Shown: piece by piece, positions 24,792 through 26,154 of the stretch
Position numbering within the stretch: the first letter of the stretch is position 1
How the letters are laid out: each line of letters starts with the position of its first letter
DNA from: a bacterium 336/3
GTDB lineage: Bacteria; Bacteroidota; Bacteroidia; Cytophagales; Thermonemataceae
Direction of reading: 5' to 3'
DNA length: 64,000 bases
Assembly: GCA_001281695.1 (NCBI GenBank)
Contig: LJIE01000004.1
Coordinates: forward strand, 1 to 64,000
Program-made: the position numbers and the translations under genes
The notes under the pieces: model-generated
What the model saw: the letters and a program-made list of their open reading frames with translations, nothing else
Databases searched by the model: none
Told to the model about the DNA's origin: nothing

Positions 24792-25562
24792 ATGAAACCG
24801 CAAAAATTAAGCGTATTACTGGGCATTCGTGAAAGAGTAGAAACTGTATTTAAAAATGCCATTGATGATTTATTTCAAAAATTTAAAAATAAGCAAACAC
24901 TCTTTAGAGGAGAGCGTAAAACTTATATCCCTTTTGATGGATATGCTGATGAGCCCACTAAACGTAGTTTTACGAATGTAGCATCCACAGTACAAGAGCA
25001 GTTAGACTGGTTATCGGAAAGTTCTAAAGACTTTTTGAATGTGGTATTTAGCATTGAAGCAACCAATGCTTCAGGTACTCCCAGAGCTGAACTTATTTTA
25101 GATGGAACACCAGTTGGAGTATTTAGCTCTTTAGAATTATTACGATTAAAATCTATTTTAGAAGGGAAATTACGTGATTTATACAAAGAGTTGCCAGTAA
25201 GATCAGAGCAAGTAATATGGGTTTTGGCAGAAGAAATAGCTTTTAAAGAACGAGGAATTCAGCAAAGTCCTTTGGAAAAAGGAAATAGTAAGACAACTAT
25301 CAAAGAATCATATATTTTGCAAGATCCACATCCTGACAAAAACCGTCAACCAGTAGTGGGTGAAAAATCAACTCAAGTAAATATTGGTGAATATACTGCT
25401 CAATATTTTTCAGGAGAATTTACCATTTATCAAAGAGCACATATGTTAGTTAAATATGAAAAATTACTTCAGGCTGTTATTACTGCGTTAGAACATGCTA
25501 ATAATGTGGAAGTAGTGGAGAGTCAGCTTGGACAGGTGATTTTTGATTATTTACATAAATAA
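24792..25562 (+). CDS. DUF7873-like protein associated with tRNA-like genes
   Basis: The 256-residue protein has no signal peptide or membrane segment. It has an N-terminal helical part (LSVLLGIRERVETVFKNAIDDL), a central KTYIPFDG segment, an AELILDGTPVGVFSSLELLRLKSILEGKL helix and a C-terminal helical pair (YQRAHMLVKYEKLLQAVITALEHAN). From memory, this order resembles an uncharacterised family (DUF7873) that I associate with RNA-repair type loci in other bacteria. That recollection needs a search. No catalytic motif is obvious. Immediately downstream lie a promoter and two tRNA-like structures, so a role in binding or handling these RNAs is likely but inferred. Confidence 0.5.
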   Translation: MKPQKLSVLLGIRERVETVFKNAIDDLFQKFKNKQTLFRGERKTYIPFDGYADEPTKRSFTNVASTVQEQLDWLSESSKDFLNVVFSIEATNASGTPRAELILDGTPVGVFSSLELLRLKSILEGKLRDLYKELPVRSEQVIWVLAEEIAFKERGIQQSPLEKGNSKTTIKESYILQDPHPDKNRQPVVGEKSTQVNIGEYTAQYFSGEFTIYQRAHMLVKYEKLLQAVITALEHANNVEVVESQLGQVIFDYLHK

Positions 25563-25571
25563 CTTATAATG

Positions 25572-25591
25572 TGATGTTTATCATTACATCA
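25572..25591 (+). other. Hairpin after the DUF7873-like gene
   Basis: TGATGT and ACATCA form a 6-bp stem with an 8-nt loop just after the stop codon. There is no T run, so it is a weak terminator at best. It could instead be a protein-binding dyad. Confidence 0.35.
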
Positions 25592-25651
25592 TAAAGAAAC
25601 AACTCTAACTTTAGCTTTAGCGTAAGATTGATGATGCTAGATAATCAGATT

Positions 25652-25659
25652 TATCTTTG
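25652..25659 (+). promoter_or_regulatory. Promoter -7 box for the tRNA-like genes
   Basis: TATCTTTG fits TAnnTTTG exactly. A start site about 5-7 nt downstream would place the 5' end of the transcript near 25665, ahead of the permuted tRNA-like gene and independent of the protein gene. Confidence 0.55.
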
Positions 25660-25695
25660 TGAGTTGAGCTTTAAGTTGAGTTTAATCGGTGAAAG

Positions 25696-25811
25696 TCAAA
25701 TTTTCCTTTTTCTTGGCATCGGTTCGAATCCGATTCAGTCCTCTAGATTTTTTTACATAAGGACTGATAGCTTAGGGGTAGAGCAAGAAACTTCAGCCTA
25801 AAAAAATTTGA
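25696..25811 (+). ncRNA. Circularly permuted tRNA-like gene (3' half precedes 5' half)
   Basis: The 3' half comes first: anticodon-stem strand TTTCT (25709-25713), variable TGGC, T stem ATCGG/CCGAT (25718-25722/25730-25734) around the canonical loop TTCGAAT, and acceptor strand TCAGTCC (25735-25741). After an 18-nt spacer with a T7 tract comes the 5' half: acceptor strand GGACTGA (25761-25767, perfect 7-bp match), T8 A9, a canonical D arm GCTTAGGGGTAGAGC (25770-25784) with G18-G19 and A14/A21, and anticodon-stem strand AGAAA (25786-25790), which pairs perfectly with TTTCT. The ends are held together by TCAAATTTT (25696-25704) pairing with AAAATTTGA (25803-25811). C-TTCA after the stem would give a UCA anticodon if joined. 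Confidence 0.75.
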
Positions 25812-25871
25812 ACATGAGTAGCCACAAGAGCCCTGCTTATCATAGGATATTTTGAAAGTGGGGCTATTTCT

Positions 25872-25944
25872 AAGGAGGTACGCAAAATGGTAAAGCGGCT
25901 TTTTCTAGCGGAGTGTATTGAAGGTTCGAATCCCTCTCTCCTTA
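25872..25944 (+). tRNA. tRNA-like gene in normal order, possible CUA anticodon
   Basis: The acceptor strands AAGGAGG (25872-25878) and TCTCCTT (25937-25943) pair over 7 bp with one G-U. T8 A9 are present. The D stem is CGC/GCG with a loop holding TGGTA. The T loop is TTCGAAT (25925-25931) on a 5-bp stem with one A-C mismatch. The anticodon arm is weak: GCTTT/GGAGT with three G-U pairs around TTCTAGC, giving CUA, which would read UAG. No CCA is encoded. The weak stems suggest a decoy or degraded tRNA rather than an efficient translator. It lies 60 nt after the permuted gene. Confidence 0.55.
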
Positions 25945-26154
25945 CTAATTTTCTTACAGAATACTAGTCTGAAACTATTCTCTACATGGTAAATTATCTT
26001 AAAATCCTTCAGGCGTTATTATCAAATACTATGGCAAAATTATAATAGTGTATTAGGTATCTGTATTAAGAGAAAATACTACTAAAAGTGAAAAGTGAAA
26101 AAGCTATATTTTTCTAAATGCCCTAACAACCTCGCAATTAATAATTTTGGAGAT

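What the first reader, a model, noticed from the sequence alone, without database searches (positions are those of the whole stretch)
25696..25811. Circularly permuted tRNA-like gene with intact tRNA landmarks
The T arm and 3' acceptor strand come before the 5' acceptor strand and D arm. The acceptor strands TCAGTCC and GGACTGA pair over all 7 bp, the T stem over 5 bp, the D stem over 4 bp and the anticodon stem TTTCT/AGAAA over 5 bp. The loop consensus TTCGAAT, G18-G19, T8, A14, A21 and a G15-C48 pair are all present. The outer ends form a further 9-bp helix TCAAATTTT/AAAATTTGA, as if holding the precursor closed at the anticodon. I know permuted tRNA genes from some algae and archaea, and permuted tmRNA from bacteria, but I do not know a described bacterial permuted tRNA of this type.
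Basis: seen in the sequence. Interest (0 to 1): 0.93.

Follow-up and report, generated by a model that had tools for sequence, protein, structure and literature searches.

The report
Permuted tRNA-like RNA beside DUF7873
A small RNA gene whose tRNA-like halves are written in swapped order, resembling the known bacterial Y RNAs, sits next to an uncharacterised protein gene and recurs beside that protein in many bacteria and phages, which suggests an overlooked RNA-protein partnership.

Summary
In detail: the paired strands and landmarks are at the stated coordinates, and a covariance model built from 54 other units, without the window's, finds 25706-25798 at 56.8 bits. It is probably not a decoding tRNA. 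The same circularly permuted tRNA topology is known in bacterial Y RNAs (YrlA, PDB 6CU1; PMC11472068, passages read), and Rfam YrlA aligns end to end at 25695-25815, far below its cut-off. What looks new is the partner. The gene just upstream (24792-25562) is DUF7873 (PF25283). Of 149 DUF7873 loci, 118 carry a strictly defined permuted unit downstream (112 of 143 without the six where I first saw it); upstream and opposite-strand controls give 1, 0 and 1 hits. Acceptor stems occur in 78 fully paired versions. Ro60, the usual Y RNA protein, lies within the fetched flanks of 3 loci and was found in 17 of 40 DUF7873 genomes searched. In all 12 strict-hit Bacteroidota loci, window included, a normal-order tRNA call follows. 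Best reading: a Y-RNA-like tRNA mimic with DUF7873 as its genetically linked, possibly RNA-binding protein. Expression, binding and function are inferred.

The parts
24792..25562 (+). DUF7873 protein gene (256 aa), the proposed partner; it ends 133 bases before the RNA unit
   Evidence: PF25283 at 125.6 bits against a cut-off of 27; family members are followed by permuted tRNA-like units in 118 of 149 loci
25600..25690 (+). possible upstream hairpin (AACTCTAACTTTAGCT pairing with AGCTTTAAGTTGAGTT); tentative
   Evidence: minimum-energy fold of 25590-25700, but z only -0.57 against shuffles
25696..25811 (+). circularly permuted tRNA-like RNA unit (Y-RNA-like), whole
   Evidence: model R1 56.8 bits at 25706-25798; Rfam YrlA RF02553 end to end at 25695-25815, 26.7 bits, below its cut-off of 69
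25696..25704 (+). outer helix, 5' strand
   Evidence: in the minimum-energy fold; not significant on its own
25709..25713 (+). anticodon-stem-like helix, 3' strand
   Evidence: sequence; model alignment
25718..25734 (+). T arm with loop TTCGAAT
25735..25741 (+). acceptor 3' strand
   Evidence: 7/7 pairs with 25761-25767
25742..25760 (+). 19-base loop joining the acceptor strands
25761..25767 (+). acceptor 5' strand
25768..25784 (+). T8, A9 and D arm
25786..25790 (+). anticodon-stem-like helix, 5' strand
25803..25811 (+). outer helix, 3' strand
   Evidence: in the minimum-energy fold
25872..25945 (+). normal-order tRNA-like gene (ARAGORN tRNA-Pyl, anticodon CTA), second member of the pair
   Evidence: 37.6 bits, the lowest of 64 tRNA matches listed for this genome; a normal-order tRNA call follows the permuted unit in 12 of 12 strict-hit Bacteroidota loci, window included

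Best explanation
The locus encodes a small non-coding RNA of the bacterial Y RNA (YrlA-like) kind. Its upper part folds as a tRNA mimic whose acceptor stem is closed by a loop and whose chain ends leave where a tRNA has its anticodon; the ends pair into a basal stem. It is the RNA half of a two-part system whose protein half is DUF7873. Proposed working: the RNA is transcribed downstream of the DUF7873 gene together with a second tRNA-like gene; tRNA-processing enzymes cut at the normal-order tRNA-like gene and so set the RNA's 3' end; DUF7873 binds the basal stem; the tRNA-like head engages a tRNA-binding enzyme (YrlA tethers Ro60 to PNPase, per PMC8394870). Shown: the sequence, the permuted fold by covariation, the recurring DUF7873-RNA linkage, the frequent second tRNA-like unit. 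Inferred: expression, co-transcription, processing, binding by DUF7873, function of the head.
For: A model built without the window's unit finds it. 118 of 149 DUF7873 loci have a strict unit within 1.5 kb downstream (166 hits in 226 kb), against 1 hit in 211 kb upstream on the same strand, 0 on its opposite strand, 1 on the opposite strand downstream and 0 in 1.13 Mb of shuffles. With T and D arms chosen without looking at the acceptor, 145 of 184 candidates pair 7/7, against 3.0% when the strands come from different loci. Flanking strands (anticodon-like stem plus outer helix): mean z -2.42 over 150 units against -0.12 for mismatched loci. Rfam YrlA matches, below cut-off, at the window and at one unit each in 4 of 6 DUF7873 loci scanned (L067, L106, L129, L149). 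Model R1 matches in this genome's Ro60 locus and in 8 of 10 other Ro60 loci at E <= 1e-8, 6 of these 8 also by the strict scan, so the head is shared with Ro60-linked RNAs. T33 in 37 of 99 units and 36 triplets speak against decoding.
Against: 19 of 149 DUF7873 loci have no confident unit downstream and one more has units upstream only; 11 of the 19 bear Bacteroidota names and are close relatives of this genome's C2 copy. The window has neither of the two short elements that recur in the family. Its DUF7873 is divergent: 19-31% identical to the other 58 proteins of alignment A4, 43% to Lak phage, 51% to L178. RF02553 is far below its gathering score; weak RF02553 matches also occur in 13 of 14 control genomes at E up to 10, and the genome-wide search did not list the window's match; L041 and L139 gave no RF02553 row, and none of 14 loci reached its gathering score. 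The window's own flanks do not pair significantly. DUF7873 has no recognised fold or RNA-binding relative. No RNA-seq or binding data.
Confidence: 0.72

Rival explanations
1. A true circularly permuted tRNA gene: the precursor is circularised at the anticodon, opened in the acceptor loop and becomes a decoding tRNA (anticodon TCA, reading UGA), as in algae and archaea.
For: The core tRNA landmarks are kept, T33 included; a putative UAG-reading tRNA-like gene lies beside it.
Against: Across the family position 33 is T in only 37 of 99 non-identical units and the triplet takes 36 values. The junction as paired here is a 4 x 12 internal loop below a 9-bp helix, not an obvious bulge-helix-bulge. 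Ro60-linked bacterial RNAs share the head.
Confidence: 0.08
2. A classical Ro60-dependent Y RNA: this RNA binds the genome's Ro60, and DUF7873 is only a neighbour.
For: The genome encodes Ro60 (C1:3343459-3344190). Ro60 is commoner in Bacteroidota genomes with DUF7873 (7 of 17 among the 40) than in a sample of the phylum (28 of 390); Fisher p 2e-4, not corrected for kinship. In one Nocardia genome (L069) Ro60 appears to lie about 12 kb from DUF7873 on one contig (contig lengths and places).
Against: The Ro60 gene of this genome is on another contig, beside its own permuted tRNA-likes. Ro60 lies within the fetched flanks (up to 4 kb) of 3 of 151 DUF7873 loci (searched with a two-sequence profile). 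23 of 40 DUF7873 genomes show no Ro60 (completeness not told). GTTACTTC, present in 2 of this genome's 3 Ro60-linked units, occurs downstream of DUF7873 in 0 of 149 loci.
Confidence: 0.15
3. Remnants of two tRNA genes, or an insertion scar, whose halves face each other by chance or after recombination.
For: Tandem duplicate tRNAs in this genome give the same pattern with the same model.
Against: No tRNA call overlaps the unit, nor any of 145 family units; covariation across phyla.
Confidence: 0.03

Closest known systems
Bacterial Y RNA, YrlA type (Rfam RF02553; PDB 6CU1)
   Same: tRNA-like D, T and acceptor arms in circularly permuted order with a basal stem made by the RNA's two ends (PMC11472068 passages; PMC8394870 passages); the Rfam alignment covers the whole model; YrlA in phages is mentioned in print (PMC7765460 passage)
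   Different: 26.7 bits against a cut-off of 69; linked to DUF7873, not to Ro60; in the family often two units per locus, with recurring elements TTnTCGCTC-like and CTTAAACG-like, which the window's own unit lacks
Circularly permuted tRNA genes of algae and archaea
   Same: 3' half encoded before 5' half
   Different: [quoted passage not shown] here no conserved anticodon or T33 across the family
Permuted, two-piece tmRNA
   Same: Permuted tRNA-like domain in a bacterial RNA
   Different: Best tmRNA-family score at the unit is 13.4 bits (cyano_tmRNA, cut-off 70); a tag reading frame was not looked for

Membership tests
YrlA / bacterial Y RNA | Circularly permuted tRNA-like module (T arm, acceptor hairpin, D arm) | tested here: met
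YrlA / bacterial Y RNA | Rfam RF02553 gathering score of 69 bits | tested here: not met
   26.7 bits, E 0.0012 in 461 bases, model positions 1-114. This genome's Ro60-linked units in L008 gave no RF02553 row at E up to 1 either, so the cut-off is narrow; weak matches are common in control genomes
YrlA / bacterial Y RNA | Basal stem formed by the RNA's 5' and 3' ends | tested here: inconclusive
   Flanking strands, anticodon-like stem included: family mean z -2.42 against -0.12 (150 units); window alone z 0.04
YrlA / bacterial Y RNA | Gene near Ro60 (Rsr) | tested here: not met
   Ro60 on contig C1, window on C4; Ro60 in the flanks of 3 of 151 DUF7873 loci
YrlA / bacterial Y RNA | Binds Ro60 and PNPase | not testable with these tools
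   Needs biochemistry
Permuted tRNA gene | Halves in reversed order with complete cloverleaf stems | tested here: met
Permuted tRNA gene | Conserved anticodon loop with T33 across homologues | tested here: not met
   T33 in 37 of 99 units, 36 triplets; the window itself has T33 and triplet TCA
Permuted tRNA gene | Bulge-helix-bulge at the junction | tested here: inconclusive
   The apparent junction is a 4 x 12 internal loop; other pairings not enumerated
Permuted tRNA gene | Ligated, charged mature tRNA | not testable with these tools
   Needs RNA-seq or biochemistry
DUF7873 (PF25283) | Pfam gathering score | tested here: met
   125.6 bits against 27
tmRNA | Rfam tmRNA-family score over cut-off at this place | tested here: not met
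tmRNA | Tag reading frame | not tested
   Not looked for

The most novel reading that the evidence does not exclude
DUF7873 and its permuted tRNA-like RNAs form a ribonucleoprotein separate from Ro60, spread over Bacteroidota, Actinomycetota, Chloroflexota, Spirochaetes and phages. It often carries two tRNA-mimic heads at a fixed spacing: 30 of 37 loci with two or more units have the first two T loops 139-160 bases apart. Such a particle could present paired tRNA mimics to a nuclease, a repair enzyme or the ribosome.
Probability: 0.4. Interest if true: 0.8.

Novelty: new variant of a known kind. Interest (0 to 1): 0.66.

Why it matters
Bacterial Y RNAs are known as partners of Ro60. A second protein family that travels with permuted tRNA mimics, in many bacteria without a detected Ro60 and in phages, would widen the Y RNA field. 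It gives a concrete, testable role (RNA partner) to a family of unknown function, and gives annotators a rule for a class of RNAs that tRNA finders miss.

Tried and rejected
A decoding permuted tRNA was considered and set low because T33 and the anticodon are not kept across the family. A tandem-tRNA artefact was tested and rejected for this unit. DUF7873 function: Pfam gives only the DUF name; no PHROG, NCBIfam or PADLOC match for the members tried; no significant solved-structure relative by sequence (best E 0.28) or by fold of an AlphaFold2 model with mean pLDDT 86.5 (Foldseek best E 0.057 in PDB and 0.071 in viral models; VIA-align best Z 6.5 at rmsd 13.9 over 165 residues). The absence of a match does not show a new fold. 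Single-sequence folding gave no support. Promoter and terminator scans of the window locus were near background (7 promoter-like against 6.1 expected; 1 terminator-like against 0.7). The anticodon-stem pairs are only 51% formed in a fixed alignment and the D stem 71%, so I do not lean on them; the 100% acceptor pairing is by selection, and the unselected test is, whose looser T-plus-D-arm pattern also gives 28 candidates in the upstream control. The 40-bit line used for the model was chosen after seeing the scores. Papers naming DUF7873: none in the held library; none joins Y RNA, Ro60 and Streptomyces; the main Y RNA papers (Chen 2014, Wang 2018, Sim and Wolin 2018 and 2020) and Burroughs and Aravind 2016 are not held, so they are recalled or seen as references only. 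The loci counted are not independent: several viral loci are near-duplicates (for example L106/L158, L111/L112, L119/L120, L131/L132, L141/L143, L144/L146, L147/L148), and L017 appears to be the contig of L007.

Full report
What was checked. ARAGORN and Rfam at its gathering scores call only one tRNA in the window, a normal-order one at 25872-25945. Rfam's YrlA model (Y RNA-like, RF02553) aligns over its whole length to 25695-25815, but at 26.7 bits against a gathering score of 69. Such weak matches are not diagnostic alone: at E up to 10, 13 of 14 control genomes have one, and the genome-wide search listed the two C2 units (28.1 and 26.9 bits) but not the window's.

The neighbour. The gene ending 133 bases before the unit is DUF7873. 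This genome has a second DUF7873 gene on contig C2, followed by two permuted units, each with a normal-order tRNA call downstream. DUF7873 is rare among Bacteroidota: 3 of 8 genomes in the window's family and 1 of 395 in a phylum sample, the window's own. I collected relatives from genomes (the best 80 of 551), viral contigs (63 loci), and phage and plasmid records. Of 151 loci, 149 have enough downstream sequence, and 118 of these have a strictly defined permuted tRNA-like unit within 1.5 kb downstream (112 of 143 if the window and the five loci where I first saw the pattern are set aside). Controls upstream, on the two opposite strands and in shuffles give 1, 0, 1 and 0 hits. Of the 31 strict misses, the covariance model finds 11 with a downstream hit of at least 40 bits (L032, L033, L035, L049, L052, L098, L102, L111, L112, L127, L150). 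One locus (L133) has units upstream only, and 19 have none that I trust. Eleven of the 19 bear Bacteroidota names (one of them, L022, has only about 300 bases downstream).

Is it a structure? Candidates chosen by T and D arms alone, without looking at the acceptor, pair over all 7 acceptor positions in 145 of 184 cases; strands taken from different loci do so in 3.0%. There are 78 distinct fully paired acceptor strands, and each of the seven positions shows all four Watson-Crick types. On an alignment of 54 units (A6) the structure exceeds all 500 shuffles in cells paired, cells changed on both sides and covariation score, and exceeds the slid versions, with the caveat that the acceptor was selected to pair. 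A model from those 54 units, which exclude the window's but include one of this genome's C2 units, scores the window unit 56.8 bits. In the whole genome it ranks third, after the two C2 units; the next two matches, at 51.5 and 50.0 bits, are tandem tRNA pairs, so the score alone is not specific. Flanking strands, meaning the anticodon-like stem and outer helix together, pair better than chance in the family (mean z -2.42 against -0.12; 66% against 7% below -2), but not in the window on its own (z 0.04).

Nearest relative. A viral contig (L178) encodes a DUF7873 51% identical to the window's. Reading its downstream sequence by eye I see a permuted unit with acceptor CGAGCCC/GGGCTCG and stem CAGTA/TACTG, then a normal-order tRNA-like sequence: the window's layout with different, still complementary strands. 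My strict scan missed it (it has G at position 8), ARAGORN called nothing there, and R1 matched elsewhere in that locus at 18 bits. In Lak phage C1 the DUF7873 gene has no unit beside it, but the phage genome carries a permuted unit followed by a normal-order tRNA-Lys elsewhere.

Layouts. In 12 of 12 strict-hit Bacteroidota loci (L005, L006, L019, L025, L028, L031, L034, L036, L038-L040 and the window) a normal-order tRNA call follows the permuted unit. Elsewhere a second permuted unit is frequent: 37 loci have two or more (19 actinomycete, 15 viral, 2 spirochaete, and L005), and in 30 of the 37 the first two T loops are 139-160 bases apart. Short elements recur downstream of the gene: TTnTCGCTC-like in 37 of 149 loci (3 upstream) and CTTAAACG-like in 47 of 149 (1 upstream); the window has neither. 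GTTACTTC, seen in 2 of this genome's 3 Ro60-linked units, occurs in 0 of 149.

Ro60. The genome has Ro60 on contig C1 next to its own permuted tRNA-likes inside a tRNA cluster. Ro60 lies within the fetched flanks of DUF7873 in L016, L121 and L145 only, searched with a profile of two sequences; in the genome of L069 it appears to lie about 12 kb away on the same contig. It was found in 17 of 40 DUF7873 genomes (40 of the 80 genome loci were sent; completeness not told), against 28 of 390 in a Bacteroidota sample. Of the 17 Bacteroidota among the 40, 7 have Ro60: an association (p 2e-4), not corrected for relatedness, and not a requirement.

Is it a tRNA? In 99 non-identical units with a fully paired anticodon-stem-like helix, T33 is present in 37 and the following triplet takes 36 values. 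That is not what decoding tRNAs show. The known bacterial precedent is YrlA, whose solved structure superposes on tRNA by circular permutation (PMC11472068, passages read) and whose tRNA-like domain and basal stem are described in PMC8394870 (passages read).

Verdict. The most economical reading is a Y-RNA-like tRNA mimic in a DUF7873-linked system. The fold kind is known. The protein linkage, the pairing of units and the frequent absence of Ro60 did not turn up in the paper searches I could make, which were mostly seen as listings. Function, expression and binding remain to be shown.

Noticed in passing
own genome contig C1:2133150-2133950 (locus L191:4650-5450): A further cluster of alternating tRNA-like halves, with Rfam tRNA matches of 118 and 124 nt and repeated AAGGTCAA, CTTACTTC and CAATTACC elements, lies upstream of a 758-aa protein without a Pfam match over its cut-off.
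   Followed up: partly
own genome contig C1:3343459-3347300 (locus L008): Ro60 gene beside a tRNA cluster in which three permuted tRNA-like units lie between ordinary tRNA genes.
   Followed up: partly
Prevotella phage Lak-C1 MK250029.1:175187-175287 (minus): Permuted tRNA-like unit followed by a normal-order tRNA-Lys, far from the phage's DUF7873 gene.
   Followed up: partly
window 25872-25945: Normal-order tRNA-like gene with anticodon CTA, the lowest-scoring of the 64 tRNA matches listed for the genome.
   Followed up: partly
own genome contig C2:110726-111241 (locus L009): Six tRNA genes in a row all called Leu by ARAGORN, with anticodons AAG, TAA, TAG, TAA, TAG and CAA.
   Followed up: no
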